Both the position numbers and the translations under genes were made by a program. A stretch of 46,845 nt of DNA, from contig NZ_RAWI01000026.1 in assembly GCF_003612125.1 (NCBI RefSeq), positions 1 through 46,845 of the forward strand, given 5' to 3'. Origin of the DNA: Corallococcus praedator. Its GTDB lineage: Bacteria > Myxococcota > Myxococcia > Myxococcales > Myxococcaceae. This document shows positions 13,801 to 39,199 of the stretch, in pieces (within the stretch, counting starts at the first letter, position 1; each line of letters begins with the position of its first letter). Under the pieces are notes generated by a model that saw only the letters and a program-made list of their open reading frames with translations, was not told the DNA's origin and made no database searches.

Positions 13801-16800
13801 TGGAGGGGCTCATCGGCTTCTTCGTCAACACGCTGCCCCTGCGTGCGTGGCTGCACGGCAAGCCCTCCTTCCGCGAGGTCGTGCGCCGCGTGCGAGACCG
13901 GGCCCTGGGCGCCTATGCGCATCAGGAGCTGCCCTTCGAAAAGCTCGTGGAGGAGCTGCACGTCGAGCGCGCCCTGGACCACGGTCCCCTGGTGCAGGTG
14001 ATGTTCACCCTCCAGAACGCGCCCGGGATGCCGCCACGGTTCCCCGGCCTCCAGGTCCAGGCGCTCGAACTCCAGACCTGGACCTCCAAGTTCGACCTCA
14101 CCCTGGCCCTGACCGAAACCCCCGAGGGCCTGAGCGGCACGTTCGAATACGCGACCGCGCTCTTCGAACCACACACGATTGAACGGATGTCGGATCACTT
14201 CCGGCGCCTGCTCGAAAGCGCGCTCCGCCAGCCCGATGCCTCCCTCCACGCCCTGTCCTGGCTCTCCGAGGAGGAGCGCCACCGCGTCCTGGTGGAGTGG
14301 AACGACACCGCCCGGCCCTACCCGCGCGACGTGTCCCTCGTGCAGACCTTCGAAGCCCAGGCGGCCGCGCGTCCGGACGCCATCGCCGTGCGCCACGGAG
14401 CCCAGGCAGTCACCTACGCGGAGCTGGACACGCGCGCCAATCAGCTCGCGTGGGCCCTCAAGGCGCAGGGCGTGGGACGTGAGACTCCGCGGGTCGGCGT
14501 GTGCCTGCCCCGAGGAATCGATCTCATCGTGTCACTGGTCGCCGTCCTCAAGGCGGGCGGCGCCTACGTGCCGCTGGATCCGGACTACCCGTCAGAACGC
14601 CTGGCCTTCATGGCCTCGGACGCGCGACTGCACCGGATCATCACGGACGCGACGCTCGCCGGCCGGCTTCCTTCGGAGGCAGTTGGCATCCTCCGCATCG
14701 ACACGCTGGAGCCTGTCTCACAGGCGGGATCCCCATTCGATGCTCGCGGCTTCCATCCTTCCGAACCCGCGTACGTCATCTACACGTCCGGGTCCACGGG
14801 CCGCCCCAAGGGCGTCTGCGTTCCCCATCAGGCCGTGCTGCGACTGGTGATGGATGCGGACTACATCCCGTTCGGTCCGGACGACCGCGTGGCCCAGGCC
14901 GCGACGGTGTCCTTCGATGCGTCGACGTTCGAGCTGTGGGGCGCCCTGCTCAACGGCGCCACGCTCGTCCTGTTCTCGAAGGAGGAGATCATCGAGCCCG
15001 CGACGCTCGCCCGCGTCCTGCGCGATGAGCGAATCACCGCGCTGTTCCTCACCACGGCCCTCTTCAATCACGTTGCTCGGATGGAGCCCACGGCCTTCAA
15101 CGGCCTGTCCACGCTCCTGTTCGGCGGCGAGGCCGTGGACCCGGCCTGCGTCAACCGACTGCTCGCCCATGGCGGGCCGCGTCGGCTGCTGCACGTCTAC
15201 GGCCCCACGGAGAATACGACCTTCAGCACCTGGCACCCCGTGACAGGGCCCGTCACCGACACGGTGCCCATCGGCCGGCCCCTCTCCAACAGCACGGCGT
15301 ACGTGCTGGATGCGCACCGCTACCCGGTGGCCCCGGGCGTCGTCGGAGAACTCTTCGTCGGGGGCGACGGCCTTGCCTGGGGGTACTGGGAGCGGCCCGA
15401 CCTCACCGCTGATGCCTTCATCCCCCACCCCTTCTCCTCCGTCCCAGGAGCCCGCCTCTACCGCACTGGCGACCTCGTCCGGCAACAGCACGACGGCGCC
15501 CTCGTCTTCGTCGGCCGCCGCGACCATCAGGTGAAGATCCGTGGCTTCCGCATCGAGCCCGGCGAAATCGAAGCGGTCCTGCGCCAGCACCCTTCCGTGC
15601 GCGAAGTCATCGTCCTTGTCCGTGAGGACTCGCCCGGCGACAAGCGACTGGTCGCCTACGTCACCTTCCGTGAGGCCCTGAGCGCCAGCGACCTGCGCGC
15701 CCACGTCCAGGGACTGCTTCCCAGCCACATGGTGCCCTCGGCGTTCGTGCTGCTCGACGCGCTGCCGCTCAACGCGAACGGGAAGGTGGACCGACGCGCC
15801 CTGCCACGACCCGAGGAGTCCACGGAAGCGGACGACACCGGCGTGGCGCCCCGAACGCCGCTGGAACAACAGGTGGCGGACGTGTGGGCACAGGTCCTCA
15901 CGCGCACGTCCCTCAGCGTCACCGCGAGCTTCTTCGACCTGGGAGGACACTCCCTGCTCGCGGCGCAGCTCGTGTCGAAGCTGTCCGAACACTTCCAGCT
16001 CAAGGTCCCGCTCCAGGTCCTCTTCCAGAGCCCGACGGTCGCGGCGCTCTCGCAGTGGATCCAGTCGCGACTCACACCGGATGCGCCCGGCGCATCGCAG
16101 TCCTCGGCCCTGCCCGAAGGCGTCGTGCCGCTTCAGCAGGGCCGCGCGGACCTTCCGCCGCTGTGGTGCATGCACCCGGTGGGCGGCACGGTGTTCTGCT
16201 ACCAGGAACTCGTGCGGGCGCTCGGGCCTGACCGGACGGTCTATGGCCTCCAGGCTCCGGGCGTGAACGGTGAATGTCCGCCGCTGGGCAGCATCGAAGC
16301 GCTCGCGTCGCACCACCTCAACGCGATGCTCCAGTGCCAGCCCCGAGGGCCGTACTACCTCGTGGGCCTCTCGATGGGCGGCACCATCGTCTACGAGATG
16401 GCCCAGCGCATGCTCAGGCTGGGCATCCCTCCCGCGCTGCTTGTCTTCCTGGACACGCCCGGCCCCGGCCAGATGCCCACCCGCTTCGAGGACGACGCCG
16501 CGCTGCTCGCTGCCATGTTCGGAGACGACACGCCGACGCTCGCGCAGCACCTGCGCACGCTGCCGCCGCACGAACAGATGCGCGAAGTCCTGCGGCAAGC
16601 CCGCGCGGGCGCGACCGTGCCGGACTCGTATTCGCTCCGGGACCTGGAGGTCTTCCTGGACGTCTGGAAGGCCCACATGCGCGCCCTCTTCAGCTACGAG
16701 CCCGTGGGCTATGCGGGACGCGCCACGTACCTCCGAGCCCAGGAGCACGTGCCGCCCCATCCGCTCCATCCCGAACAACCGTGGCAGGTGCTCGTCCAGC

Positions 16801-25926: not shown

Positions 25927-27378
25927 TCAGTTCGAAGCCAGGTCCGGGTCGGAGCCGTCCTCGCCCGAGGGCTCCGTGCCGTTCGGAAACAGGGCTCGAA
26001 GCTTCAGCCGCAAGGTCTGGCGTGAGACGCCGAGCGTCCGCGCGGCCTGGCTCTGGTTGCCCTGGGAGGACTCGAGCACGGCGGTGAGCAGGAACCGGTC
26101 GAGTTCGTCGTGGGCTTCGGCGTAGAGCTGGGTGGTCTTCAGCGCCAGCCGCTGTTGGATGAAGTCCTCGAGCGCCGGCTGCGCGACGCCCGCACCAGGA
26201 GGCCTGACCGGGTTCAGCAGCGAGGGCAGGAACAAGGGCAGCAGCACCGTGCCGCTCGCCTTGAGCAGGGCCTGCTTGAGCACGCTCTGCAGCTCCCGCA
26301 CGTTCCCCTTCCAGGGATGGGCGGCCAGACGTTCCAGGGTCTCCGGTGCGATCTCCCGGATGTCGCGGCCCAGCTCCGCGCCGAAGCGGCGGACGTAGTG
26401 CCGGGCCAGGGTGGCCACATCGTCGCCCCGCTCGCGCAGGGGCGGCAGGTGGATGGAGAACACGCCGAGCCGGTAGAAGAGGTCCGCCCGGAACCGCTCC
26501 TGGGCGGACAGCCGCGCGAGGTCCCGATGCGTCGAGGCGATCACCCGCACGTCGGTGTGGATCGTCTCGTTGCCGCCCACGCGCTCGAAGGTGCGCTCCT
26601 GCAGGACCCGCAGGATCTTGGCCTGCAACGCGAGCGGCATGTCGCCCACCTCGTCGAGCAGCAACGTCCCCCCGTTGCACTGCTCGAACTTGCCAATGCG
26701 CCGACGGTCCGCGCCGGTGAAGGCGCCCTTCTCGTGACCGAACAGCTCGCTTTCGAGCAGATGTTCGGGGATGGCCGCGCAGTTCAGCGCGAGGAAGGGC
26801 GCCTTCGAGCGGGCACTGTGCTGGTAGAGCGCCCGCGCGACCAGTTCCTTGCCAGTGCCGCTCTCGCCGGTGAGCAGCACCGTCACGTCCTGAGCGGCCA
26901 CCCGGCCAATGGATTTGTAGACCTCCAGCATCGCCGGACAACCGCCGATCAGGGAGCCCTCCGCGCGCTCGTCGGGAGGCTCCTCGTTGAGCAGCACCGG
27001 GGAGCGCATGCGCCGGGCGACTTCACAGGCCTCGCGAACCGTCTGCCCCAACTGCACGAGGTCGAGGGGCTTGTGGAGGTAGTTGAAGGCGCCATGCTTC
27101 ATCGCCTCGATGGCGGTGTCCGCCGTCTTGGCCATGGTGATGAAGACGACGGGAATGCGGGCGTCGAGGGCGCGGATCTGCTGATACACCTCCAACCCTG
27201 ACTGATCCGGCAACATCAGGTCGAGCAGGATGACGTCGGGCGCTTCGCGGCGCACGCTCGCAAGGCCATCCCGACCCGTGCTCGCCCAGCGCACCCGGTG
27301 GGCGGGCGCGGGGAACAACTGTCGGACCTGGGCGGGAATGACCGCCGCGTCGTCGTCGATGAGAAGAACATCCGCCAT
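25927..27378 (-). CDS. NtrC-family sigma-54 response regulator (REC-AAA+-Fis HTH)
   Basis: A 483-residue activator. The receiver domain (1-118) has acidic pocket D8-D10, phospho-site D53 (LLDLMLPD), T81 and K103. The AAA+ domain (about 142-375) has Walker A GESGTGKE (171-178), the sigma-54-contacting GAFTGA loop (218-223) and Walker B GGTLLLDE (236-243). A Fis-type helix-turn-helix ([19 protein letters not shown]) lies near the C-terminus. All signatures for ATP-driven open-complex formation are intact. The ATG at 27378 was chosen over a GTG three codons upstream. It is divergent from the hybrid kinase gene by 69 bases, and a sigma-54 promoter lies just past its stop. I infer it activates the two hydrolase genes, with the kinase as partner. 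Confidence 0.95.
25950..25976. repeat. Inverted repeat, candidate enhancer site for NtrC-type activator
   Basis: CGGAGCC (25950-25956) and GGCTCCG (25970-25976) form a perfect 7-bp inverted repeat with a 13-base spacer, so half-sites are 20 bases apart (about two helical turns). Its centre is about 120 bases upstream of the sigma-54 promoter, a usual position for an activator-binding site. It lies within the 3' end of the activator's own coding region, so chance is possible. Confidence 0.3.
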
Positions 27379-27447
27379 GCGGTGCACCCACGGGGTGTGC
27401 GACTACGCAGCCTGCTCGATGTCGGGCATCATCGCGAGCACCCTCCC

Positions 27448-30249
27448 ATGCCTCCAAAAAACCTGTCCGTCGAGGACGATCTTCGCTCCGCGCAACACCT
27501 CCTCGGCGTCAGCGACGGGCTGAGCGAACGGCTCCGGTTCGCGCTCCAGGGGTCGACCATCGGCGTCTGGGAAACCCAACTGACGGACGAGAACATCGAG
27601 AACGGCCGCCTGTCGGCGGTGAACGTCTGGGAACCGCTCGGCTACCCGGCCGAGGGCCCGCGAACGATGGCGGACCGCCTGGCGCTCTGGCACCCCGACG
27701 ACGTGGAGCGGGTGAAGCGGGTCACCGCGGCGTACCTGAAGGGTGAAACGCCGGGGTTCGAGGTCGAGGTCCGCGTCCGGCAGCACGACGGCACGTACCG
27801 GTGGATCCTCAGTCGGGGCACGGCGCTGCGCGACGCCCAGGGGCGTGCGCATCACTTCCTGGGCGTCAGCATCGACATCACGGATCGCAAGGAGGCCGAG
27901 ACCGCGCTCGCGCGCAGCCAGGAGCGCTACCGCGCAACGTTCGATCACGCTCCCGCCGGCCTGGTCCACGTGGATCCGCGACATGGGTTGAGGCACTTCA
28001 ATCGCGCCTACTGCGAGATCACCGGGTACTCCGTCAAAGAGCTCCTGGCCCTCGAACCCACCCAGCTCGCGCACCCCGAGGACCTCGAGCACGCGCTCGG
28101 CCATTTCCTGTCGCTGAGCCGGAATGAGATCGCGACCTACAGCATCGAGCACCGGTTCATTCGCAAGGACGGCAGGACGATCTGGATCAGCGTCACGTCC
28201 TCACGAGTGCCCACCGACGACGGAGCCGACTCATACATCGTGAGCATCGTGCACGATGTGTCGCGGCGAAAGCAGCTCGAGGAAGAGCTGCGGCAGGCGC
28301 GCGCGCTGGCCGAGCACGCCAACCGCGCCAAGGACGAGTTTCTCGCGAACGTCAGCCATGAGATCCGCACCCCGATGAATGCCATCCTCGGGATGACGGA
28401 GCTGGTCCTGGACACCCACCTCACCCAGGCCCAGCGTCAGTCGCTCAAGACCGTGAAGTCGGCCACGGGCAACCTGCTGGGGATCATCAACGACCTGCTC
28501 GACTTCTCGAAGATCGAAGCCGGCAAGCTGGCCCTGGATGCGGCGGACTTCGGCCTGCGCTCCGCCATCGGTGACACGCTGCGAGCGCTCGCCGTCCGCG
28601 CGCATCGCAAGGGGATCGAACTCGTCTGCAACGTGCACGCGGACGTCCCCGACGCGCTGGTCGGTGATGCGGGGCGTCTGCGGCAGATCGTCATCAACCT
28701 CGTGGGCAATGCCATCAAGTTCACCGCCCAGGGGGAGGTGGTGATGCAGGTGGAGGTCGCGAGCGAATCCGCCGAGCAGGTCGCGCTGCGGTTCTCCGTG
28801 CGCGACACCGGCATCGGCATCTCCACCGACAAGCAGACCGCCATCTTCCGCGCCTTCGAGCAGGAAGACGCCTCCACCAGCAGGAAGTACGGCGGGACCG
28901 GCCTGGGCCTCACCATCGCCGCGCGGTTGATTGGACTGATGGAGGGCGACATCGGGGTGGAGAGCGAACCAGGCCGCGGAAGCACCTTCACGTTCACCGC
29001 GCGCTTCGGACGGCATTCGGCGCCGACGGACCCTCCCCTGCCCCGACCGCTGCCGCTGCTGCGAGGCCTGCGGGTGCTCGTGGTGGACGACAACGCGGTG
29101 AACCGGCGCATCGTCGAGGAGTGGCTGCGCGCCTGGCGGATGGAGCCCACCGGGGTCGGTGACGGCATCGCGGCGATGGATGCACTCTGGCACGGCGTGG
29201 CGACGGGGCGACCGTACGCGCTGGCGCTGCTGGACTTCAGGATGCCGGACATCGACGGATTGAGCCTCGCGGCGAAGATTCGCGAGCGCTCCGAGCTGGC
29301 CGGCAGTCGCATCGTGCTGCTCACCTCCGCGGATCGACCTGGAGAGGCCGGCCGGATGCGCGAGCTGAAGATTGAAGCGCACCTGCTCAAGCCCGTGCCC
29401 CAGGACGAGCTGCTGGAGACCCTGCACCACGTCCTGGGCAGCGCCCCCACGGCGCCCGTGGTGGACGCGCCTTCCCCGGTGACTTCGAGCGCCACGGAAG
29501 TCCCCGCTTCGCCCGCCCGCCCCTTGCGCATCCTCATCGCCGAGGACGACGACTTCGGTGCGCAGCTCCTCCGTCAGTTGCTGACCCGGCGCGGTCACGA
29601 CGTGCACTCCGCCACCAGCGGCTTCGAAGCGCTGAAGCGGCTCGAAGCGGACGCCTACGACCTGCTGCTCCTGGATCTCCACATGCCGGAGCTGGACGGG
29701 TTCGAGGTCATCCGGAGCATCCGTCAGCGCGAACAGTCGACGGGCGCGCACCTGCCGGTGGTGGCGGTGACGGCCCGCTCACGCCGGCAGGATCGCGAGC
29801 GCTGTCTGGCCGCGGGCATGGACGACTTCCTGACCAAGCCCATCATCGCCAACGACCTCTGGGCGGTGCTCGAGCGCTTGGACCGCCGTCGAGCGCTCCG
29901 CCAGCTCCTGGATGCGCCGGTCCTGCTGTCGGCGTGCGGGGAAGACGCTCCGCTGCTCACGAAGCTCTGCGATGCGCTCATCGCGCGCCTGCCCGTCGAC
30001 CTCGCCTCGCTCGACGAGGCGATCCGCCACGGTGACGCGCATCGGCTGCGTCAGTGCGCGCACAAGCTCTCCGGAGTGCTGGCGACCTTTTCCAGCCTCG
30101 CGGGTGACCTCGCCTCCCAGATCGAGGACCGCGCGGAGGAGGGGCTTCCCCAGGAGGCCGCGCCGCTGGCCGCGCGGCTCCAGGCACTCTCGGGGGACCT
30201 GTTGATCGCCGTGCGGGGGCTGACCGTCAACGAGCTTCGCGGCGAATGA
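27448..30249 (+). CDS. Hybrid histidine kinase PAS-PAS-HisKA-HATPase-REC-REC-HPt
   Basis: A 933-residue soluble sensor with no membrane segment. It has two PAS domains (about 30-150 and 155-275, each ending in a PAC-like DITDRK or DVSRRK), HisKA with phospho-acceptor H304 (NVSHEIRTPMN), and HATPase with N box N421, G1 DTGIGI (D453) and GTGLGL (484-489). Receiver 1 (about 541-660) has D596, receiver 2 (about 693-810) has D743 in LLDLHMP, and a C-terminal HPt domain has H872 (AHKLSG). All residues for a full H-D-H-D phosphorelay are present. I chose the ATG at 27448 because upstream sequence overlaps the divergent activator gene. The last acceptor is plausibly D53 of that activator. PAS domains suggest a cytoplasmic small-molecule or redox signal, identity unknown. 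Confidence 0.96.
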   Translation: MPPKNLSVEDDLRSAQHLLGVSDGLSERLRFALQGSTIGVWETQLTDENIENGRLSAVNVWEPLGYPAEGPRTMADRLALWHPDDVERVKRVTAAYLKGETPGFEVEVRVRQHDGTYRWILSRGTALRDAQGRAHHFLGVSIDITDRKEAETALARSQERYRATFDHAPAGLVHVDPRHGLRHFNRAYCEITGYSVKELLALEPTQLAHPEDLEHALGHFLSLSRNEIATYSIEHRFIRKDGRTIWISVTSSRVPTDDGADSYIVSIVHDVSRRKQLEEELRQARALAEHANRAKDEFLANVSHEIRTPMNAILGMTELVLDTHLTQAQRQSLKTVKSATGNLLGIINDLLDFSKIEAGKLALDAADFGLRSAIGDTLRALAVRAHRKGIELVCNVHADVPDALVGDAGRLRQIVINLVGNAIKFTAQGEVVMQVEVASESAEQVALRFSVRDTGIGISTDKQTAIFRAFEQEDASTSRKYGGTGLGLTIAARLIGLMEGDIGVESEPGRGSTFTFTARFGRHSAPTDPPLPRPLPLLRGLRVLVVDDNAVNRRIVEEWLRAWRMEPTGVGDGIAAMDALWHGVATGRPYALALLDFRMPDIDGLSLAAKIRERSELAGSRIVLLTSADRPGEAGRMRELKIEAHLLKPVPQDELLETLHHVLGSAPTAPVVDAPSPVTSSATEVPASPARPLRILIAEDDDFGAQLLRQLLTRRGHDVHSATSGFEALKRLEADAYDLLLLDLHMPELDGFEVIRSIRQREQSTGAHLPVVAVTARSRRQDRERCLAAGMDDFLTKPIIANDLWAVLERLDRRRALRQLLDAPVLLSACGEDAPLLTKLCDALIARLPVDLASLDEAIRHGDAHRLRQCAHKLSGVLATFSSLAGDLASQIEDRAEEGLPQEAAPLAARLQALSGDLLIAVRGLTVNELRGE

Positions 30250-30309: not shown

Positions 30310-33300
30310 CTAACGCCGCAGCATGCCGCGCAGCAGCTCCAGCGCTTCGGTGATGCCCTGCCACACCTGGAGGGCCTTGATGCCCTCCCCTTCGCCCTGC
30401 ACGTTGCGGCGGGCAGCGCGCTCCAGCGGCAGGAGCGCCCCTTCCACCAGCTCAATCTGCCGGCTCAGCTCCGCCGGAGACGGACCGCTCGCCGCGCGCT
30501 GGAGCGACTCGGCCGGGGACTGCGCCGGCATGGACACGGACACCGGCCGGTCCGCCAGGGCGGTGATGGCGTGGGAGAGCTGCGCCAGGTACGGCCCGAA
30601 GTCGGGGGCCGGCGCGGCCAGCGGCACATTGCGCAGGGTGGGCGCCTCGGACGCGGTCGCCACGCGCTCCGTCAGGGCCTTGAGCAGCTGGGCCAGGTGC
30701 TTGAGGTACGGGGCCAGGTCCGTCGCCGGAGCGGACGGGACGACCACCGGGGCCGGGGCCACCGGCGGCGGCTTCGCGGCCGTCTCGCGACCCACGCGGG
30801 CGACCTCCAGGACGGCCTCGCGCAGGGCCTCCAGGTGCGGGGCCACCTCCACCAGGGGGTCCACGTCGGGGGCACTGCCCGCCTGCGCGGCGGCCTGGAC
30901 CACGGCGTCGCGCACCGCGCCCAGCTGCTCCTCGATGGCGCCCAGCTGACCGGTGACGCGCGCCACGGGGTCGTCCTCCTTGCCCCCCATGCGCTTCACG
31001 CGGGCGAAGCCCTGCTTGATCTCCTCCCAGCGCTTCGCCTTCTCCGGCGTCAGGCGTCCGCGCATCTCCGCCAGCTTGAGCAGGTTCTGCTCCGCGGCGG
31101 TGGTGAGCGTCTGGGATTCGCCCTGGTAGTGGTCGTCGATGCGGCGCTCCAGCTCGTCGTCCGTCATCGCGGAGACGACCTTCTCCGCCATCTTGCCCAT
31201 GTTGCGGTAGCTGCCCTGCAACTTGAACGGCGGCTCCGTGCGGAAGCGCTCGTCCTGCGCGGCGGAGGCGATGTACTGGAGGTTCACCTTGAGCAGCACC
31301 TGCTGCACGCGGAACAGCCGCTGGAAGACGGCGACAATCTCCTGGAGCTCCGCCGCCGCGTAGCCGTGCTTCAGCTCGCCGGAAGGGACATCCTCCCCCT
31401 TCGCCATCCGGATGAGGCGGTGCACGTCCTGCGGGTCGCGCGTGGCCAGCGGCGCCAGCACCGGGTTGGAGGTGAGCGCGTTCTCCAGGTAGCTGAGCGC
31501 GAACAGCTCTTCCTTGCCATCCAGGATGTCGCCCAGGTTGTACGTGTCCGCGCGGTTGGCGAGCATGTCCGGGATGCGGAAGCGCTCACCCGTCTCCGTG
31601 TACGGGTTGCCGGCCATCACCACGCAGAACTTCTTGCCGCGCAAATCGTACGTGCGCGTCTGGCCATTCCAGACACCCTCCACGCGGCGCTGGCCGTCGC
31701 ACAGGGAGATGAACTTCTGGAGCAGCTCCGGATCCGTGTGCTGGATGTCGTCGAGGTAGAGCATCACGTTGTTGCCCATCTCGAAGGACAGGTTGATGCG
31801 CTCCACCTCCTGCCGCGCGGTGGCGTTGGGCGCCTCCGACGGATCCAACGACTTCACGGAGTGGCCCAGCGCCGGTCCGTTCACCTTCACGAAGGTGAGG
31901 CCCAGGCGGCTGGCCACGTACTCCATCAGCGTCGTCTTGCCGTAGCCGGGCGGCGACATGAGCAGCAGCATGCCCATGCGGTCCGTGCGCTTGCCCTCGC
32001 CCGCCGCGCCCAGCTGCTTGGCCAGGTTGGCGCCGATGAGCGGCAGGTACACCTCGTCGATGAGCCGGTTGCGCACGAAGCTCGTGAGCACCTTGGGCGT
32101 CAGCTCCTCCAGCCGCAGCTTGCGCCGCTCCTTGTCCAGCAGGTCGCGCAGGTACGCGCGGTAGGCCATGTACGCGGGCACGCGCACCTGACGGAACTCG
32201 CCCAGCCGGGACAGGAACTCATCCAGGCGCAGCGGCAGCTTGCGGTCCTGCACGCGCGGGTGGCTGCCCAAGAGGCCCGTGGCCTCCGAGGACGTGATGG
32301 CGCCCGCCGTCTCGCGGTCCAGCTTGCGCTCGGTGATGAGCACCACCGCCGTCTCCAGCGACACGTAGGCCGCGTCGCCCGCGCCCCCCTCGCGCTTCGC
32401 GAGGAACGCGTCCACCCAGGCCCGCGCGATGCGCAGGCGCTCCGGCAGGTTCTTCTCCAGGCCGCGCAGGTCCTCGTCGAACGCGGTGCGCGAGCCGTGC
32501 CGGTCCAGGTGCGCGAGGAAGGCGTCCTTCACCGCCAGGGCCTCGCGGCTGGTGGTGAAGCGGGGGTTCGCCACCGCCAGCTCCTCCACGAGGTAGCGGC
32601 CCGCCTGCCGTCCTTCCGCGGGCGACGCCGCGAGCCCATGGCCCTTGAGGAACGCGAGCACCTGTTCGCCCAGCTCATCGCCCAGGGCCACCAGGTCCGA
32701 CGACGTGTCGAACGCCTGGCGAAGCCGCGCGAGGCTCTGCGCGCGCCGGTGGAACACACCCCGGAGCGTGTCGTCCGTGTCGAACGCCCAGTAGAGCGCG
32801 GCCCATGCGCGAGGCACCGGGGCGAAGCGCAGCAGGCCCGCGCCCTGATGCAGCGCGAGCAGCTTCTCCAGGAGCGACACCGCGTCCGCGTCGTGCACGC
32901 CGCGCTCGTAGCCCTCGTCGAAGCGGTCCGCCGAGTATGCCCGCACCCGCTCCAGCAGCTGTCCCTGCGCGCCGGCCTCGTACAGCGCCGCGAGCGTCAG
33001 GCCGCCCTTGCCCTCTTCCGCGTCCAGCAGCAGCGCCGCGGCCAGGTACTCCGAGCGGTAGACATCGCGCGTCTCGGAGACGAGGTGCTGCTCCCACAGC
33101 TCCCGGTACTTGAGCAGCTCCGGGTCCTCCAGCTTCTGCGTGTAGTCGGAGCCGGTGAGCTGCAGGTACAGCGCGCCGTCGCGCGGCACCAGCGTCAGGT
33201 CCAGGGGCTGCGTGTTGACGTGGAAGCGGTAGGGCCCCAGCTTGATGAGGCCCTCGCCGCCCTCGAACAGGTCCTGCCGGTCGCGCAGGGCGCGCAGGGC

Positions 33301-35844
33301 GTCCTGCTTGGCGGACTTCACCCGCGACATCACCTCGTCCGAGCGCACGCTGTCCTGCAGCGCCAGGAGCTGCTCGGCCAGCTGCCGCAGCTTGAGGATC
33401 ATCGCGTCGGACGCGAAGTAGGCGTTGAGTTCGTCGTCCGCCTTGAACGCCTTCGCCCGCCGCTGCACGCCCTGGAGGATGCGCTCCGCGGCGCTGAAGA
33501 GGCCGGACGCGCGGCGCTGGCGCTCGTCCACCAGCGACTGCTTGCGCGCGCCGAAGGCCTCCAGCAGCTCCTCGCGCTTCTGGGTGATCTGCCCCAGGAA
33601 CTCGTCGAACTCGCCGAAGCGGCCCTCCAGTTCCTCCAGCATCACGGTGAGCCGCGACAGCGCCTCGTCGCACTTCTCCGGAGCATCCGCCTGGGACAGC
33701 GCGTTCTCGATGCTCTGACCCAGCAGCTTGAACTGCGCGCCGAACTCCGCGCGCTTCTCCCGGCTGCTCAGCTCCTTGCGCCGCGCCTGGAGCCCCGCGC
33801 GCACGCGGTTCAGGCGGCTGAACAATTCGGAGATGCCCTCCAGGATGCGGGCGCGCGCCAGCGGGTCGCCCACCTGGAGTCCACCCACCACCTCGCCCAG
33901 CACCTCCAGGCCCTGGCCGGTGCGCTCCACGTCCTCCACCAGCGGCGCCAGCTCCGCCGTCGTGGTGACGGGCTCCAGCCGCTCCAGCAGGCCGTCCAGC
34001 CGGGTGGCCAGCGGTTGGAGCGCTTCGCCCTTCTGGAGGAAGTCCACGCACGCGGTGCTCACGGCGTCGGACGCGGCCACCACCGCCTGCTCCAGGGCGT
34101 CCACGCGCCCCAGGTCCATGTAGCGGATGTCCTTCAGGGTGATGAGGTGCCCGCGGTGCCGGCGCAGGTCCGCCAGCGCCCGCATGAAGCCCTCCGCGTC
34201 GGTGAGCCCCTCCGGCTGGGACTGGAGCAGGAGCGTGTCCTGCGCCGTCACCGCCTGCGCGAGCGACTCCTCCGCGCGCTTGCGCATCGCGAGGACCTTC
34301 TCGAACTCATCGATGATGAGCTCGGAGGTGCGCCGCAAGAGTTCAATGGGCTCCTGGAGCCCGACCTCCGCGTGGTTCAGCCAGTAGTACGCGTCCAGCG
34401 CCCGCGTGGCCGCGGACACCAGGTCCTCGTACGTGCGGCGGGTGGGCTTGTCCGTCTTCGCCACGCGCGGCAGCGTCAGGGCGTCGCTGATGCCGCGCAC
34501 CAGCTCCGCGTTGCCCACCTTGCCCAGGTAGCCCGGCGCGGGGGGCAGCTGCGCCGCGTGCTCGTCGGAGACGAACGGCGTCTGCCACACCTGCATGGGG
34601 TGCACGCGCGTGGGCTCCTGCGACGTGGCGCGGAACACCACCAGCCCACCGTCCGCGAAGAGGCTCATGCCGTTGGAGACAAGGGGCGTCTGCACCTCCT
34701 TGCGCACTAGGTTGTACGGGAACAGCACGTAGCTGCCCTCGTCCCGGCGGTGGAAGACGTAGAGCACGTCCTCCCCGTTGGGCGAGCGCACCGCGTGGTG
34801 GAACTCCATCTGCTCCGACGCGCCGTCGAAGACCTTGTAGTCGCCCGTCTGGAGGTAGTAGCCGCCCGGGAAGACGATGCCCTGGTCCTCCGGCAGCCGC
34901 ACGCAGGACTGCCCGATGGCGTCGATGCGCACCACGTGCTGGGTGCGCGCGTTGAAGACGAGGTAGCGGTGCGCCTTCTCCCGGAACGGGAGCACGCGCA
35001 GCAGGATGAGGCCGCCCACCTGTGTCCAGGCGAACTCCGCGTCATCCAGCGATTGATCCGGGTCGTCCACCGGCTCGCTGTAGATGCCCAGGCCGGTGGT
35101 GGTGTTGTCCTCGACCTTGATGGTGAGGTCGCCCTTCACCGTCTCCACGAAGACCTGATCCAGCACGTTGACGTGCGGGTGCTGGCCCAGCACGTACTGC
35201 TCGCGCGTGGCCACCGTCCACTCGAAGTCGTGCGACGGCGGGAAGACGTGGTCGCGCTCGCCCTGGTTGTCGACGTAGGTGGCGCGGCCCTCCACGTCCA
35301 CGTTGAAGCGGAAGACCTTGAGGTCGCGCGCGGACTGGCCCGTCTGGAACACGGCCAGCAGGCGCGAGTCCCGCCGGCGCAGCTGCAACAGCTTCGCGTC
35401 CTTGTAGTACTTGTACAGCTCGCCGAAGTCCTTCACGAACCGGGGGTCCGCGAGGAAGCCGCCGGCCTCCGTGGAGGGCACGGCGGACAGGTCGAAGCCC
35501 TCGGCCGTCTTCTCGAAGCGGTGCAGCGAGAAGACGTCCGAGACGACCGTCTCCTTCTTCAGGCCGATGAAGACGTTGTAGCCGAAGAGGAGGTACTTCC
35601 CGACGCTGACGATGTCGCGCGGGACGCAGTTGTTCTCCGTGCGCACCCGCTCGTTGCCGATGACGGTGAGTTCCGTGCCACCGAAGAGCGCCTTGCGCCG
35701 GGCGTTGAGGTCGTTCGCCTGGGTCGCCAGTGCGTCCGCCTGGGAGTGGAGGCGCGCACGGATGACCTCGTAGCTGCCGCCCTCCAGCGTCGCCTCGCCC
35801 CCGGGCACAGGGGTGCCCGGGGTCTTGCCGCTGTCAGTTGCCAT
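30310..35844 (-). CDS. Giant AAA+ ATPase of flotillin-linked cassette
   Basis: A 1,844-residue protein. Residues about 15-450 form a beta-rich domain opening with EGGSYEVIRARL and RTENNCVPRDIVSVG…FGYNVFIGL. Residues about 480-860 are long amphipathic helices, probably coiled coil. A single AAA+ core follows: Walker A SPPGYGKTT (K1303), Walker B MLYLDDIQ (D1365, D1366), and a sensor/arginine-finger region with MAGNPYTETGERFRIPDMLANRAD. The C-terminus (about 1640-1844) is Ala/Pro-rich with two related helical segments (DLAPYLKHLAQ, DFGPYLAQLSH). The core resembles MoxR/dynein-type AAA_5 modules. From memory, relatives are auto-annotated as 'DNA repair ATPase'; nothing visible supports a repair role. 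It is the third gene of a cassette with the flotillin (59-base gap) and the OB-fold membrane protein. A GGTGA site precedes the ATG. Confidence 0.88.
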   Translation of the reverse strand: MATDSGKTPGTPVPGGEATLEGGSYEVIRARLHSQADALATQANDLNARRKALFGGTELTVIGNERVRTENNCVPRDIVSVGKYLLFGYNVFIGLKKETVVSDVFSLHRFEKTAEGFDLSAVPSTEAGGFLADPRFVKDFGELYKYYKDAKLLQLRRRDSRLLAVFQTGQSARDLKVFRFNVDVEGRATYVDNQGERDHVFPPSHDFEWTVATREQYVLGQHPHVNVLDQVFVETVKGDLTIKVEDNTTTGLGIYSEPVDDPDQSLDDAEFAWTQVGGLILLRVLPFREKAHRYLVFNARTQHVVRIDAIGQSCVRLPEDQGIVFPGGYYLQTGDYKVFDGASEQMEFHHAVRSPNGEDVLYVFHRRDEGSYVLFPYNLVRKEVQTPLVSNGMSLFADGGLVVFRATSQEPTRVHPMQVWQTPFVSDEHAAQLPPAPGYLGKVGNAELVRGISDALTLPRVAKTDKPTRRTYEDLVSAATRALDAYYWLNHAEVGLQEPIELLRRTSELIIDEFEKVLAMRKRAEESLAQAVTAQDTLLLQSQPEGLTDAEGFMRALADLRRHRGHLITLKDIRYMDLGRVDALEQAVVAASDAVSTACVDFLQKGEALQPLATRLDGLLERLEPVTTTAELAPLVEDVERTGQGLEVLGEVVGGLQVGDPLARARILEGISELFSRLNRVRAGLQARRKELSSREKRAEFGAQFKLLGQSIENALSQADAPEKCDEALSRLTVMLEELEGRFGEFDEFLGQITQKREELLEAFGARKQSLVDERQRRASGLFSAAERILQGVQRRAKAFKADDELNAYFASDAMILKLRQLAEQLLALQDSVRSDEVMSRVKSAKQDALRALRDRQDLFEGGEGLIKLGPYRFHVNTQPLDLTLVPRDGALYLQLTGSDYTQKLEDPELLKYRELWEQHLVSETRDVYRSEYLAAALLLDAEEGKGGLTLAALYEAGAQGQLLERVRAYSADRFDEGYERGVHDADAVSLLEKLLALHQGAGLLRFAPVPRAWAALYWAFDTDDTLRGVFHRRAQSLARLRQAFDTSSDLVALGDELGEQVLAFLKGHGLAASPAEGRQAGRYLVEELAVANPRFTTSREALAVKDAFLAHLDRHGSRTAFDEDLRGLEKNLPERLRIARAWVDAFLAKREGGAGDAAYVSLETAVVLITERKLDRETAGAITSSEATGLLGSHPRVQDRKLPLRLDEFLSRLGEFRQVRVPAYMAYRAYLRDLLDKERRKLRLEELTPKVLTSFVRNRLIDEVYLPLIGANLAKQLGAAGEGKRTDRMGMLLLMSPPGYGKTTLMEYVASRLGLTFVKVNGPALGHSVKSLDPSEAPNATARQEVERINLSFEMGNNVMLYLDDIQHTDPELLQKFISLCDGQRRVEGVWNGQTRTYDLRGKKFCVVMAGNPYTETGERFRIPDMLANRADTYNLGDILDGKEELFALSYLENALTSNPVLAPLATRDPQDVHRLIRMAKGEDVPSGELKHGYAAAELQEIVAVFQRLFRVQQVLLKVNLQYIASAAQDERFRTEPPFKLQGSYRNMGKMAEKVVSAMTDDELERRIDDHYQGESQTLTTAAEQNLLKLAEMRGRLTPEKAKRWEEIKQGFARVKRMGGKEDDPVARVTGQLGAIEEQLGAVRDAVVQAAAQAGSAPDVDPLVEVAPHLEALREAVLEVARVGRETAAKPPPVAPAPVVVPSAPATDLAPYLKHLAQLLKALTERVATASEAPTLRNVPLAAPAPDFGPYLAQLSHAITALADRPVSVSMPAQSPAESLQRAASGPSPAELSRQIELVEGALLPLERAARRNVQGEGEGIKALQVWQGITEALELLRGMLRR

Positions 35845-35903
35845 GGATGTTCACCGAAAAGGGATGCGGTTCGCGGATGCGCCGGACGGAAGGCCCTTGA
35901 GGG

Positions 35904-38063
35904 CTAGCCCTGCTTCTCGAGGAGGGCCGCGGCCTCCGTCTGCACGAGCGCCTTGATTCCGGCGGCCGTGGAGGCGGTGGGGCTCAGGGACATCCGGTTG
36001 AGCAGCGCGGCGACGGCCAGGTTCTGCGCGTCGTTGCTGAGACCCGGCTTGGAGAGGATCTCCTTCAGGTCCGCAGGCAGGTCCTTCTCACCGTTGAGGT
36101 AGCCGCCGAGCGTCTTCTTCAGCGCCTCGCTGTGATCCAACGCGCCGTCCACGGAGCTGCCGAAGGAGACGGCCTTGATGAAGTTCTCGAAGAACTTCCC
36201 GTCGCCGCCGACGATCTGGAACTTCGCGTTGCCGAAGGCCTGACCCAGCACCTGGGCCTGCGCCTGGGCAATGTCCTTGCGCACGTTGATGGCCGCCAGC
36301 TCCACGTCGCGCTCCTTGTTGAGGCGCAGGCGGTACTCCTCGTGCTCGCGACCCACGCCGTCCAGGGCCTTCATCGCGGTGGCCTTCTCCGACAGGCCCC
36401 GCGCCTCGGCCATCAGCTTCTCCTGGATGGCGGCGGCCTCGGCGAGCAGCTTCTCGCGCATGGCGAACGCCTCCGCCTCGCCGCGCTTGTGGATGGCGCC
36501 GGCTTCCGCCTCCTGCACGCGGGCCTGGGCCATGCCCTTCTCCTCCATACCGGAGGCCTCGGCGAGCAGCTTCTCGCGCGTGGCGGAGGCCTGCGCCTGG
36601 CCCTGCTTCTGGATGACGGAGGCCTCGGCCTCCTTCACGCGCACCTGCGCCATGCCCAGCTTCTCGGTCGCGACCGCGTCGGCTTCACGCACGCGCACGT
36701 TGGCGAGCCCCGCCGCGGCGGACTCGGCCTGGATGCCCTCGGCCAGGCGCATCTTCGCCTTGGCCGACTTGTCCGCGGCCTCCAGGTCCGCCTCCGCGAG
36801 GGTCAGCTTCTCCTTGGCGAGGAAGACGGCGATCTTCGCGCTCGCGTCCGCGGCCTGGATGTCCTTGACGGACGCCTCTTCCGCGTGCGCCTGGGCGGCG
36901 ATGATGATGGCGTCCTTGTTGCGCTTGGCCTCCGACGTCACGCGCAGGTCCTTGATGTTCTCCTCTTCCTGGGCGACGGTCTTCTCCACCGCGATGCGGG
37001 CGCGCACCACGTCGGCGATGGCCTTCTTCTCGCCTTCGAGCGCCTTCTCCTTGGAGATGCGCTGCAGCTCCGTCTCGCGCTCGCGGTTGATGGCTTCCAG
37101 GGCGCGGTCCTTCTCCACGCGCTCGGTCTCCACGCCCACCACGCGCTCGCGGTTCTTCTGCGCCACCTGCACCTGGCGCGTCTTGTTCTCCTCGTTGATG
37201 GCGATCTCTTCTTCGGCCTTGATGCGCGCGAGCTGCGCCTTGGCGAACTCCTCGCTCTTCACGCGGTCGGCCTCGGCCGTCTCACGCGCCTGGATGCTGT
37301 CGATCTCCCGGCGCTGCTTGGCGGCCGCCTCTTCACGCTGACGCTGCAGGGCGAAGATGGCCTCGTCGGCTTCCACGTCGCGCTTCGTCACCGCCATGCG
37401 CTCGGACTGGCGCAGCTCGTTGGTGAAGACGTTCTGCTCGGTGGTGAGCTGGGTGATCTTCCGGATGCCCTGGGCGTCCAGGATGTTGTCCTTGTCGAGC
37501 ATCTCCACCGGGGTCTGCTCGAGGAAGTCGATGGCGCAGTCCTCCAGCATGTAGCCGTTGAGGTCGCGGCCGATGGTGCCGACCACCTTGTCCTTGATCT
37601 CATCGCGCTTGGTGTAGAGCTGCTCGAAGTCGAAGCTCTTGCCCACCGTCTTGAGGGCCTCGGAGAACTTGGCCTCGAAGAGGTTCTCCAACGTCTCCTG
37701 GTCGCTGGCGCGCACGCAGCCGATGGACTGGGCGACCTTGAGCACGTCCTCGCGGGTCTTGTTCACGCGCACGAAGAAGGTGACCTTGATGTCCGCCCGG
37801 ATGTTGTCCTGGCAGATGAGGCCTTCCTTGCCGCGACGGTCGATCTCCACCGTCTTCAGCGAGATGTCCATCACCTCCGCGCGGTGGACGATGGGGAGGA
37901 CGACGGCGCCGGTGAACGTCACCGTGGGCTCCGTCTTCATCGTGTTGACGATGAGCACCTTGCCCTGATCCACCTGGCGGTAGAACTTCGCCACGCTGAC
38001 GAAGATGCCGAAGAGGATGATGACGCCGCCGCCGATGATTGCTGCCAGGCTGATGGGATCCAT
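35904..38063 (-). CDS. Flotillin-family SPFH membrane protein (YqiK-like)
   Basis: A 719-residue flotillin. An N-terminal membrane segment (about residues 4-26, LAAIIGGGVIILFGIFVSVA) is followed by an SPFH/Band-7 domain (about 30-225) and a very long Glu/Ala/Lys-rich coiled coil (about 230-640) typical of flotillin oligomers that organise membrane microdomains. A conserved short domain follows (FQIVGGDGKFFENFI), and the tail is LVQTEAAALLEKQG. The layout matches E. coli YqiK but is longer, partly through a 40-residue tandem repeat. The ATG at 38063 has AGGAAGG just upstream; the frame is open to 38174 without a membrane-segment start. It sits between the YqiJ-like gene and the giant ATPase gene, all co-directional. 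Confidence 0.94.
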   Translation of the reverse strand: MDPISLAAIIGGGVIILFGIFVSVAKFYRQVDQGKVLIVNTMKTEPTVTFTGAVVLPIVHRAEVMDISLKTVEIDRRGKEGLICQDNIRADIKVTFFVRVNKTREDVLKVAQSIGCVRASDQETLENLFEAKFSEALKTVGKSFDFEQLYTKRDEIKDKVVGTIGRDLNGYMLEDCAIDFLEQTPVEMLDKDNILDAQGIRKITQLTTEQNVFTNELRQSERMAVTKRDVEADEAIFALQRQREEAAAKQRREIDSIQARETAEADRVKSEEFAKAQLARIKAEEEIAINEENKTRQVQVAQKNRERVVGVETERVEKDRALEAINRERETELQRISKEKALEGEKKAIADVVRARIAVEKTVAQEEENIKDLRVTSEAKRNKDAIIIAAQAHAEEASVKDIQAADASAKIAVFLAKEKLTLAEADLEAADKSAKAKMRLAEGIQAESAAAGLANVRVREADAVATEKLGMAQVRVKEAEASVIQKQGQAQASATREKLLAEASGMEEKGMAQARVQEAEAGAIHKRGEAEAFAMREKLLAEAAAIQEKLMAEARGLSEKATAMKALDGVGREHEEYRLRLNKERDVELAAINVRKDIAQAQAQVLGQAFGNAKFQIVGGDGKFFENFIKAVSFGSSVDGALDHSEALKKTLGGYLNGEKDLPADLKEILSKPGLSNDAQNLAVAALLNRMSLSPTASTAAGIKALVQTEAAALLEKQG
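36421..36660 (-). repeat. 120-base tandem repeat inside flotillin coiled coil
   Basis: Two adjacent 120-base units (36541-36660 and 36421-36540) encode about residues 469-508 and 509-548. Each reads as GMAQ(V/A)RV(K/Q)EAEA…REKLLAEA. A third, weaker unit precedes them (GLANVRVREADA). They lengthen the coiled coil by exact 40-residue steps. Confidence 0.85.
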
Positions 38064-38177
38064 GGCCTTCCTGTGAAGTCGTTGGGCGGGCCTTGTTCCA
38101 AGCACTCGGGGTCCCCCGCGAAAGCCACCCGGTGCCGATTGTCGCGCCCGTCCGGAAGGCCCGGAGGACGCCAATGT

Positions 38178-38990
38178 TCATCGCTGCGAGCGGGCCCTCG
38201 CGACGGCCGCTGCCTTGAGCGGATCGCGAAGCTGCTCCATTTCCTGCGGCAGGAGCCAGTCCACCGGCTCCACCTCGTAGACACCGCGCTCGGCGTCGTA
38301 GCCGAGGATCAACGCCGGCTCGCCCCGCTTGAGCTGGTTGGGCTTGTCACAGACGACGTTGAGGATGAGGCCCGCGGCCCCGTCATTGAAGGTCGCGTGG
38401 CCGTCGCGCGCGTTCACGCTGCCACTGGAGATGCTGCACACGCGGCCCATCAGGGCCTCGCGGCCCGGGGCCTTCTTGGCGATGAAGATGGGCCGCAGGG
38501 GCCGCACCGCGAGTCCGGCCACCCCCGTACCCACCGCGAAGCAGCCCAGGCCCAGGCCCGTGCTGATGAGCCAGGAGGGCAGCATGGAGAGCGCGCCGTG
38601 CGCCATCTGGCCGGTCAGCAGGGACAGCGACCAGGACAGGAACACCACCAGGCTCACCGACACGGTGATGGGGATGCCCCCGAAGCCCAGCGCCGCGAGC
38701 AGGCCGGTGGCGGCCTCCGCGTCATGCGCGTGCGAGTGTCCGCCGTGGCCATGCCCCGAGACGGCCTTCGCGCCGCCCTCCAGGAGCCCCGACGTGGCCT
38801 TGGCCCCGCCCTCGAACGCGCCACTCACCGCCTTGGCGCCGCCTTCCAGGTCGATGTGGGCGTCACCGTCCAGCATGTCGATGCCCGCCGCGCCGATGAT
38901 CACGCAGAGCCAATAGGCCAGCACCACCCCGAGGAAGGCGGTGAAGATCGCGGTCGGAAACGCCACCAGGGCGTCGAGGAAGGTCGTCAT
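38178..38990 (-). CDS. OB-fold/NfeD-like membrane protein (YqiJ-like)
   Basis: A 270-residue inner-membrane protein. The N-terminal hydrophobic segment (about 10-36) is followed by a 33-residue stretch of three EGGAKA(V/T)SG repeats (49-81) and a His-rich patch (HGHGGHSHAH, 80-89). Two more membrane segments (about 104-128 and 136-164) precede a soluble beta-rich domain (about 175-250, GREALMGRVCSISSGSVN…GEPALILGYDAERGVYEVEPVD), the NfeD/OB-fold that partners flotillins. E. coli YqiJ-YqiK is the nearest arrangement I know. The ATG at 38990 follows CGAGGC. It is the first gene of the cassette, 114 bases before the flotillin, and divergent from the topoisomerase. Confidence 0.82.
   Translation of the reverse strand: MTTFLDALVAFPTAIFTAFLGVVLAYWLCVIIGAAGIDMLDGDAHIDLEGGAKAVSGAFEGGAKATSGLLEGGAKAVSGHGHGGHSHAHDAEAATGLLAALGFGGIPITVSVSLVVFLSWSLSLLTGQMAHGALSMLPSWLISTGLGLGCFAVGTGVAGLAVRPLRPIFIAKKAPGREALMGRVCSISSGSVNARDGHATFNDGAAGLILNVVCDKPNQLKRGEPALILGYDAERGVYEVEPVDWLLPQEMEQLRDPLKAAAVARARSQR
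38748..38846 (-). repeat. Three 33-base repeats in the YqiJ-like gene
   Basis: Three consecutive 11-residue units, (L/F)EGGAKAxSGxx, cover residues 49-81. They end directly in a histidine-rich run. An 11-residue period suits an amphipathic helix lying on or near the membrane. Confidence 0.8.
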
Positions 38991-39040: not shown

Positions 39041-39199
39041 GCACCCGTATCCGAAAATGCCACCCGGGGCTTTTCCACCTGTCTGGAGGGCATGCAGCCA
39101 GGAGCCGCGCGGGATTGCCGGTCGGCGGCGGGCTGCGCACTACAGGGTGAGCCCGGGCGTCCAGGTGTCCTGGAGCCCCCGGCCCCTGGGATGGTCTTG

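What the first reader, a model, noticed from the sequence alone, without database searches (positions are those of the whole stretch)
30310..38990. YqiJ-like OB-fold protein, long flotillin and giant AAA+ ATPase form one cassette
Seen: three co-directional genes with gaps of 114 and 59 bases. They encode a membrane NfeD/OB-fold protein, a 719-residue flotillin and a 1,844-residue AAA+ protein with intact Walker A and B but a large unclassified N-terminal domain and a coiled-coil middle. Established: NfeD-type proteins partner flotillins in membrane microdomains. Inference: the ATPase is a dedicated remodelling motor acting on or docked to the flotillin scaffold, perhaps in membrane stress or defence. 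The name 'DNA repair ATPase' often attached to such proteins has no visible support.
Basis: partly seen in the sequence, partly recalled or inferred. Interest (0 to 1): 0.75.

Follow-up and report, generated by a model that had tools for sequence, protein, structure and literature searches.

The report
Flotillin scaffold with dedicated ATPase motor
Three neighbouring bacterial genes encode a membrane anchor, a flotillin scaffold and a giant ATP-driven protein that are nearly always inherited together, so they very probably work as one membrane-stress machine; the gene trio was already in print, but I found no test of what it does.

Summary
Three co-directional genes (gaps 114 and 59 nt) encode a YqiJ-type NfeD protein, a 719-aa flotillin and an 1,844-aa DUF3686/AAA+ protein in a Corallococcus-like genome. 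In 193 Myxococcota genomes ATPase and long flotillin co-occur in 92, with 3 one-sided cases. The trio is not new: Ravi et al. 2024 (mSystems) described the YqiJ + flotillin + AAA+ operon and its link to PspA. My best reading is an SPFH scaffold with its own AAA+ motor for membrane-stress remodelling. Physical partnership is inferred; defence and DNA repair gained no support. Details I saw in no passage I read: a 361-residue helical arm almost free of indels, an Asp-Asp Walker B, a flotillin C-terminal module found in ATPase-linked flotillins and not in the 22 YqiK-type loci tested, and a conserved element, perhaps an RNA hairpin, before the flotillin gene in part of Myxococcaceae.

The parts
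38178..38990 (-). yqiJ/nfeD-type membrane protein, 270 aa, first gene
   Evidence: ORF; hydrophobic segments; family-profile match to E. coli YqiJ
38748..38846 (-). three 11-residue repeats (EGGAKAVSGAF / EGGAKATSGLL / EGGAKAVSGHG, residues 49-81) between the first two hydrophobic segments
   Evidence: read directly from the translation
35904..38063 (-). long flotillin, 719 aa, second gene; N-terminal hydrophobic segment, SPFH, coiled coil, C-terminal module
37542..37976 (-). SPFH/Band_7 domain of the flotillin (residues 30-174)
36084..36362 (-). flotillin C-terminal module (residues 568-660), found in the ATPase-linked flotillins and not in 22 YqiK-type loci tested; candidate docking site (inference)
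36400..36657 (-). 120-bp (40-aa) tandem duplication in the flotillin coiled coil
   Evidence: this stretch is present in about half of 110 flotillins
30310..35844 (-). giant AAA+ ATPase, 1,844 aa, third gene
34384..35730 (-). DUF3686 domain (residues 39-487)
33265..34347 (-). helical arm, residues 500-860, 361 residues long in 114 of 118 sequences
30880..32067 (-). AAA+ region (residues 1260-1655): Walker A SPPGYGKTT, Walker B YLDDIQH, GNP, PDMLANRAD, SYRN
30313..30879 (-). C-terminal tail (residues 1656-1844), proline-rich, variable in length between lineages
38067..38157 (-). conserved element in the nfeD-flotillin gap, perhaps a hairpin or pseudoknot; found in some genera of the family only
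39053..39075 (-). near-palindrome GAAAAGCC-N6-GGCATTTTC upstream of nfeD, candidate operator or promoter region

Best explanation
The cassette encodes one membrane machine. Shown: the three genes are a conserved unit in at least four phyla (named from record titles), and the ATPase has invariant AAA+ motifs. Inferred: the NfeD-like protein and the long flotillin form an SPFH scaffold that holds stressed or unfolded membrane proteins, as published for FloA-NfeD. The DUF3686 AAA+ protein is its dedicated soluble motor. It docks by its N-terminal domain and fixed-length helical arm, perhaps on the cassette-specific C-terminal module of the flotillin, and uses ATP to release, extract or refold clients or to disassemble the scaffold. 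The Pfam scan found no protease domain, so it would be a remodeller and not a protease. In some Pseudomonadota it works beside PspA.
For: Order NfeD-flotillin-ATPase in 67 of 80 loci; flotillin adjacent in 70 of the 76 with enough upstream sequence. SPFH gene upstream on the same strand in 40 of 40 loci of the cross-phylum sample, within 700 nt in 37, and NfeD in 39 of 40. In 193 Myxococcota genomes: both 92, ATPase only 1, long flotillin only 2, neither 98. Of 6 non-adjacent loci, 5 genomes keep the long flotillin farther away. Both Actinomycetota genomes with two ATPase copies have NfeD and SPFH open frames beside each copy. The C-terminal flotillin module is in 8 of 8 ATPase-linked and 0 of 22 YqiK-type loci. 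PspA + DUF2170 lie upstream in 10 of 120 loci. Walker A and B invariant in 120 of 120.
Against: No physical, genetic or expression data. Co-occurrence within a phylum partly reflects shared ancestry. PspA does not track the ATPase closely: it is in 147 of 193 Myxococcota genomes against 93 for DUF3686. Flotillin coiled-coil length does not correlate with ATPase arm length, because the arm hardly varies. No aromatic pore-loop signature is evident after the second strand (position inferred), so substrate threading is not assured. One draft genome with the ATPase (L147) gave no flotillin match. A conserved element in the nfeD-flotillin gap leaves room for separate control of nfeD and the other two genes.
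Confidence: 0.55

Rival explanations
1. The ATPase is an ESCRT-like/Vps4-like disassembly motor for PspA polymers, and the flotillin-NfeD pair only recruits it to the membrane.
For: PspA + DUF2170 sit upstream of the cassette in 10 of 120 loci. Ravi et al. compare PspA-AAA+ associations with ESCRT-III/Vps4 and suggest that abbreviated cassettes work with PspA encoded elsewhere. PspA is found in 89 of the 93 Myxococcota genomes with DUF3686.
Against: PspA was not found near the cassette in 110 of 120 loci and is also in 58 of 100 Myxococcota genomes without DUF3686, whereas flotillin is almost always adjacent.
Confidence: 0.2
2. The ATPase is a DNA-repair or DNA-translocating motor, as its Pfam description says, and its place beside flotillin is incidental.
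For: The Pfam description of DUF3686 is 'ATPase involved in DNA repair'; P-loop similarity to RuvB.
Against: The RuvB similarity covers 45 to 74 residues from the P-loop to Walker B, and CDC48-type proteins match the P-loop as well. No nuclease, helicase or DNA-binding family in the Pfam scan. Constant linkage to membrane scaffold genes.
Confidence: 0.04
3. The cassette is a phage-defence system with a membrane effector.
For: AAA+ and membrane proteins recur in defence systems (general knowledge); uneven distribution: 8 of 246 Actinomycetota and 8 of 398 Pseudomonadota genomes, centre genomes included.
Against: PADLOC gives only P-loop-level matches to the ATPase (IetA, best E 0.0013 over 31 residues). 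DUF3686 is in every same-family genome of 8 Mb or more that one search lists, in one copy apart from a short fragment in G123. No defence family among the eight neighbour proteins that I identified by Pfam; neighbours were not scanned with PADLOC.
Confidence: 0.05
4. The ATPase regulates scaffold assembly only (number, size or movement of flotillin domains) and has no client proteins.
For: Same gene-order data; the cassette-specific module is on the flotillin itself; no protease family in the Pfam scan.
Against: No direct evidence either way; published FloA-NfeD function is client holding.
Confidence: 0.16

Closest known systems
YqiJ + flotillin + AAA+ (beta-propeller / coiled-coil / AAA+) operon of Ravi et al. 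2024, mSystems, PMC11237479
   Same: Same three genes; the PspA, CesT/Tir (DUF2170) and phospholipase-D neighbours they report also appear in some Pseudomonadota loci here.
   Different: That paper infers beta-propeller repeats, which I could not test. The sections and passages I read (18, 19 and search hits) give no gene-order counts for this trio and do not mention the fixed-length arm, the flotillin C-terminal module or the gap element; its supplements were not read. No word beginning 'myxo' occurs in its main text.
FloA-NfeD holdase of Staphylococcus aureus (Ukleja et al. 2024, PMC11222466)
   Same: NfeD-type gene followed by a flotillin gene.
   Different: The function described there is ATP-independent (abstract); here a dedicated AAA+ gene is third in the cassette.
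HflK/HflC-FtsH complex
   Same: SPFH assembly working with an AAA+ ATPase (starts of abstracts in the listing).
   Different: FtsH is a membrane-spanning protease (recalled; 'AAA protease'); here the ATPase has no membrane segment by hydropathy and no protease family in the Pfam scan.
E. coli yqiJ-yqiK
   Same: Homologous NfeD-like and flotillin proteins in the same order.
   Different: The next annotated feature after yqiK is an sRNA gene, with no ATPase in the stretch; DUF3686 rings in 0 of 14 control genomes, a set that includes E. coli (named); YqiK lacks the C-terminal module.
IetA (PADLOC/NCBIfam anti-phage ATPase)
   Same: AAA+ P-loop.
   Different: Similarity limited to about 30 residues.

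Membership tests
Flotillin/YqiK (SPFH) | SPFH/Band_7 domain | tested here: met
   Band_7 8.4e-9 on residues 1-288; 9.5e-12 in the genome search; not reported when the whole protein was scanned
Flotillin/YqiK (SPFH) | N-terminal membrane segment and long coiled coil | tested here: met
   hydrophobic stretch within residues 1-28; profile match to YqiK over residues 6-414; coiled coil itself judged from the sequence and from YqiK
Flotillin/YqiK (SPFH) | oligomeric cage or clamp | not testable with these tools
NfeD/YqiJ | homology to YqiJ | tested here: met
   profile probability 94%, E 1.2e-7; four unrelated controls at most 0.5%
NfeD/YqiJ | OB-fold C-terminal domain | not tested
DUF3686 (PF12458) | score over the curated cut-off | tested here: met
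   677 bits against a cut-off of 25
AAA+ ATPase | Walker A, Walker B, sensor 1, arginine finger, sensor 2 | tested here: met
   Pfam AAA over its cut-off; key residues invariant in 120 of 120, with Asp-Asp as Walker B; sensor 1, finger and sensor 2 assigned by motif, not by structure
AAA+ protease (FtsH-like) | peptidase domain | tested here: not met
   no peptidase family in the Pfam scan at 0.1
DNA repair ATPase | DNA-processing domain beyond the P-loop region | tested here: not met
Operon of Ravi et al. 2024 | flotillin + YqiJ + AAA+ with N-terminal extra domain and coiled coil | tested here: met
Operon of Ravi et al. 2024 | beta-propeller repeats in the ATPase N-terminus | tested here: inconclusive
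   no internal repeats by profile self-comparison, no solved-structure match better than E 1; fold not predicted
Known anti-phage systems | match to a PADLOC model over its length | tested here: not met
   three cassette proteins scanned, only P-loop-level matches

The most novel reading that the evidence does not exclude
The cassette is a distinct class of SPFH-AAA+ machine, parallel to HflKC-FtsH but without proteolysis: a flotillin assembly with a cassette-specific C-terminal docking module, served by an AAA+ motor that acts through a rigid arm of fixed length, with the supply of scaffold and motor perhaps set against the NfeD subunit by a structured leader in part of Myxococcaceae.
Probability: 0.3. 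Interest if true: 0.8.

Novelty: new member of a known kind. Interest (0 to 1): 0.45.

Why it matters
Bacterial flotillins are usually seen as scaffolds, and FloA-NfeD of S. aureus is reported to work without ATP. A widespread flotillin with its own ATPase would be a clean system for asking how SPFH scaffolds are driven and emptied. It would also replace a misleading 'DNA repair' label carried by a family of very large proteins.

Tried and rejected
Profile searches of solved structures gave only matches around the AAA+ P-loop for the core and nothing better than E 1 for DUF3686. Internal repeats in DUF3686, expected for a propeller, were not found. AAA+ subclade: single-sequence comparisons gave RuvB 95.6%, FtsH 91.4% and RavA 17.2%, but the ABC-type ATPase ZnuC, meant as an outsider, gave 48.1%, so the test mostly sees the P-loop and I assign no clade. 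A length coupling between the flotillin coiled coil and the ATPase arm was tested and rejected, as the arm hardly varies (70 sequences); a weak correlation with the C-terminal tail (rho 0.37) was not corrected for ancestry and is not used. Sigma-70-like promoters: 0 in the region with 0.3 expected, uninformative in this GC-rich genome. Sigma-54: no consistent GG-N10-GC site across the upstream alignment. Gap element as an RNA hairpin, results against it: the window sequence alone folds no better than shuffles (z 0.54); RNAalifold chose the loop-downstream helix, not the varying stem; and the two covariation measures least misled by relatedness do not exceed shuffles (5 pairs with two-sided change against 4.6; 13 further pair types against 12.4). 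No Rfam match. Defence and DNA repair were considered and rejected as above. Literature: searches for DUF3686, PF12458 and 'DNA repair ATPase' + flotillin returned no papers; the library lacks most subscription journals.

Rows dropped or shared before counts: in the cross-phylum sample I fetched 40 loci. The Planctomycetota genomes G1003, G962, G923 and G1031 were left out (20 regions per call) and not examined; the three centre genomes G200-G202 were not fetched again, as their loci (L133, L125, L107) were in the 80. The 80 loci are the best of 326 and lean towards close relatives. The sets and share genomes and are not added together. The 119 AAA+ sequences were found by similarity to this one, so their motif conservation is that of a selected set. 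Loci whose ATPase is split between open frames (L085, L180) are in the motif count but not in the arm count. The phyla of G200-G202 are named from record titles; the tool told no group.
Full report
WHAT IS THERE. The window belongs to a 10.5-Mb genome. The closest named locus found is Corallococcus terminator, with 98% identity in the ATPase, so the genome is myxobacterial and I call its phylum Myxococcota. Three genes lie head to tail on the minus strand: nfeD/yqiJ-type 38178-38990, flotillin 35904-38063 and ATPase 30310-35844, with gaps of 114 and 59 nt. A topoisomerase IB gene runs away from them on the other strand (ORF from 39092) and a hybrid histidine kinase gene (27298-30249, plus strand) converges on the end of the ATPase gene. 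The ATPase has Pfam DUF3686 (residues 39-487), DUF7902 (607-691) and AAA (1293-1413) and no membrane segment by hydropathy. The flotillin has a Band_7 domain when its N-terminus is scanned alone and its family profile matches E. coli YqiK. The first protein's family profile matches E. coli YqiJ.

IS THE TRIO REAL? (a) Broad set: 80 loci from named records, by title in Myxococcota, Actinomycetota, Planctomycetota and Gammaproteobacteria, kept as the best of 326. All three genes stand in order in 67: the 65 counted by the script plus L123 and L144, which its gap limits rejected only because over-extended ORFs overlap. In three more (L081, L132, L151) the flotillin is adjacent and the contig ends. 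Four (L077, L095, L111, L150) have under 700 nt upstream and tell nothing. Six (L101, L106, L110, L117, L143, L147) are not adjacent. So the flotillin is adjacent in 70 of 76 informative loci. (b) Less biased set: DUF3686 was sought in evenly drawn genomes of three other phyla and found in 8 of 246 Actinomycetota, 8 of 398 Pseudomonadota and 29 of 198 Planctomycetota, one in each being the centre genome. In 40 fetched loci from 38 genomes an SPFH gene lies upstream on the same strand in 40 of 40. The distance from its open frame to the ATPase is under 700 nt in 37 and 1,054-1,444 nt in three (L183, L184, L219), where I did not resolve what lies between. NfeD was found in 39 of 40 (not in L186). 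(c) Myxococcota regions: 31 of 40 show all three, 3 show flotillin at a contig end (L048, L058, L068), 3 are cut by contig ends (L047, L052, L062), and 3 (L050, L051, L056, all one family) have no adjacent flotillin.

CO-OCCURRENCE. In the same 193 genomes of the window's phylum DUF3686 is in 93 and a long flotillin at E 1e-50 or better in 94. Both are in 92, ATPase alone in 1 (G168, contig edge), flotillin alone in 2 (G034, where the contig ends right after the flotillin, and G026, a 75%-complete genome with a fragment), and neither in 98 (counted by hand from the two lists; Fisher test, not corrected for ancestry). Three weaker flotillin matches (G010, G101, G138) were left out of the 94. 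Where the genes are apart the partnership usually persists: of the six non-adjacent loci above, five genomes still encode the long flotillin (for L117 about 6 kb upstream in the same stretch, for L101 about 27 kb away on the same chromosome); one 3.0-Mb draft (L147) gave no match. The split family in (c) keeps it on other contigs. Two Actinomycetota genomes with two ATPase copies, G330 and G384, have NfeD and SPFH open frames beside both copies; in G384 the SPFH frames are short, so those flotillins may be interrupted. In 200 Pseudomonadota genomes searched with E. coli YqiK, 28 matched: the 8 with DUF3686 (all weak YqiK matches) and 20 others with YqiK-type proteins.

ANATOMY THAT BEARS ON MECHANISM. 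(1) AAA+ motifs: SPPGYGKTT, the Asp-Asp and Gln-His of Walker B, the Asn-Pro-Tyr-Thr of sensor 1, Pro-Asp-Met-Leu and Asn-Arg before the putative finger, and LQGSYR are invariant in 120 of 120 sequences. The stretch after the second strand has no conserved aromatic residue (its role as pore loop is my inference). (2) Helical arm: residues 500-860 measure 361 residues in 114 of 118 sequences, and the other four differ by at most two, at 45-63% mean identity. The following stretch 860-1250, at 40-53% identity, varies in length; residues 200-400 and the AAA+ core are also nearly constant in length, at higher identity. Hydrophobic periodicity is 3.2-3.6 in 10 of the 12 windows starting between 481 and 811 and about 2.6-2.7 in two, with conserved breaks (Pro722, Gly565), so the arm is mainly helical and perhaps segmented. 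(3) Flotillin tail: each half of a module at residues 568-660 scores 47-73 bits in the 8 ATPase-linked flotillins of the YqiK search and at most 6.6 bits in the 22 YqiK-type loci; it is also absent from five other Band_7 loci of the window's own genome. The 8 positives belong to the family behind the profile, so the negatives are the informative part. (4) Flotillin coiled coil: length varies from 348 to 446 residues between anchors in 70 sequences, and in the window includes a 40-aa tandem duplication.

CONTROL REGION. The nfeD-flotillin gap holds a conserved element, modelled with 92 positions from 33 loci that were picked by its loop motif. Its stem arms vary around a nearly invariant loop. 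For pairing: 27 two-sided changes against 10.7 in shuffles (17 at most when slid), covariation score 0.315 against at most 0.184 when slid. Against: the number of pairs with two-sided change (5 against 4.6) and of pair types (13 against 12.4) do not exceed shuffles, and several changes are shared by a clade. The loop can also pair downstream (98.8% paired, hardly varying, so little evidence), which would make a pseudoknot. In Corallococcus, the window's own genus, the stem needs a bulged base, by my reading. The window sequence alone does not fold better than shuffles. With the model, 23 of 42 sources match at E 0.01 or better; loci of several other genera of the same family do not. In 6 of 8 genomes searched there is one significant match, the cassette, and one further match at E 0.17; 2 genomes have none; only 150 candidates per genome were scored. 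A near-palindrome lies 63-85 nt before nfeD in the window and at about the same place in the 8 other Corallococcus-type loci examined. The flotillin-ATPase gap is not conserved and shrinks to 20 nt in three of them. The simplest reading is one transcript with possible separate adjustment between nfeD and flotillin-ATPase; an internal promoter or operator is not excluded.

NEIGHBOURS AND LITERATURE. In 8 of the 80 loci and 2 of the 40, all gammaproteobacterial or Pseudomonadota, a DUF2170 and a PspA gene precede the cassette; rhomboid, zinc-ribbon and phospholipase-D genes occur in fewer. This matches Ravi et al. 2024 (PMC11237479; [quoted passage not shown] The finding is therefore a member of an operon type already in print. 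A 2009 classification of SPFH proteins (PMC2636767, passages only) recorded the NfeD pairing; the word ATPase does not occur in its main text. A 2022 Psp survey (PMC9239133, passages only) notes PspA with band-7/FloT proteins and NfeD as a neighbour. Ukleja et al. 2024 (PMC11222466; abstract, outline and passages) report FloA-NfeD as an ATP-independent holdase of unfolded proteins. A 2026 Pseudomonas aeruginosa SPFH paper (PMC13086221, passages only) has no mention of 'ATPase' as a word start. HflKC-FtsH papers and the human flotillin cage were seen only in a search listing.

MOST LIKELY MECHANISM. Shown: a conserved genetic unit, invariant ATPase motifs, a length-locked arm, a flotillin tail absent from the YqiK-type loci tested. 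Inferred: the NfeD-flotillin pair makes a client-holding scaffold and the ATPase is its motor. Not shown: any contact, activity, client or phenotype. PspA is a plausible co-worker in some lineages but not a constant partner (89 of 93 ATPase genomes and 58 of 100 others have it).

VERDICT. Interest lies in a widespread SPFH-AAA+ pairing for which I found no experiment, and in the details listed above.

Noticed in passing
window 38067-38157 (-): Conserved element with nearly invariant loop before the flotillin gene in several genera of the family; perhaps an RNA leader, pseudoknot, operator or internal promoter. No Rfam match.
   Followed up: partly
window 39053-39075 (-): Near-palindrome GAAAAGCC-N6-GGCATTTTC upstream of nfeD, found at about the same place in the window and 8 other Corallococcus-type loci, with looser versions in some Myxococcus, Pyxidicoccus and Citreicoccus loci.
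   Followed up: partly
window 38748-38846 (-): Three 11-residue repeats in the NfeD loop between hydrophobic segments; 11 was the best period in 20 of 49 homologues (window included, many of them close relatives) with a long loop. Such repeats can form amphipathic membrane-binding helices (recalled).
   Followed up: partly
L180 5196-10142: One of two cassettes in genome G330 has the ATPase in two separate open frames, DUF3686 and AAA+, 144 nt apart.
   Followed up: no
L085 9945-15316: The ATPase of this draft genome lies in two overlapping open frames (432 and 1,582 aa), probably a frameshift.
   Followed up: no
L192 4901-9994: DUF3686 is interrupted by a TGA in genome G454; a similar stop was reported in G170, of the window's own genus.
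   Followed up: no
G123:C39:24270-24386: A second, 39-residue DUF3686 fragment in another genome of the window's genus.
   Followed up: no
L079: A record titled Comamonas sp. KCTC 72670 carries a Myxococcus-like cassette (80% identity): probably mislabelled or contaminated.
   Followed up: no
window 4812-16946 (+): A 4,044-aa nonribosomal peptide synthetase with four AMP-binding domains and a terminal thioesterase.
   Followed up: no
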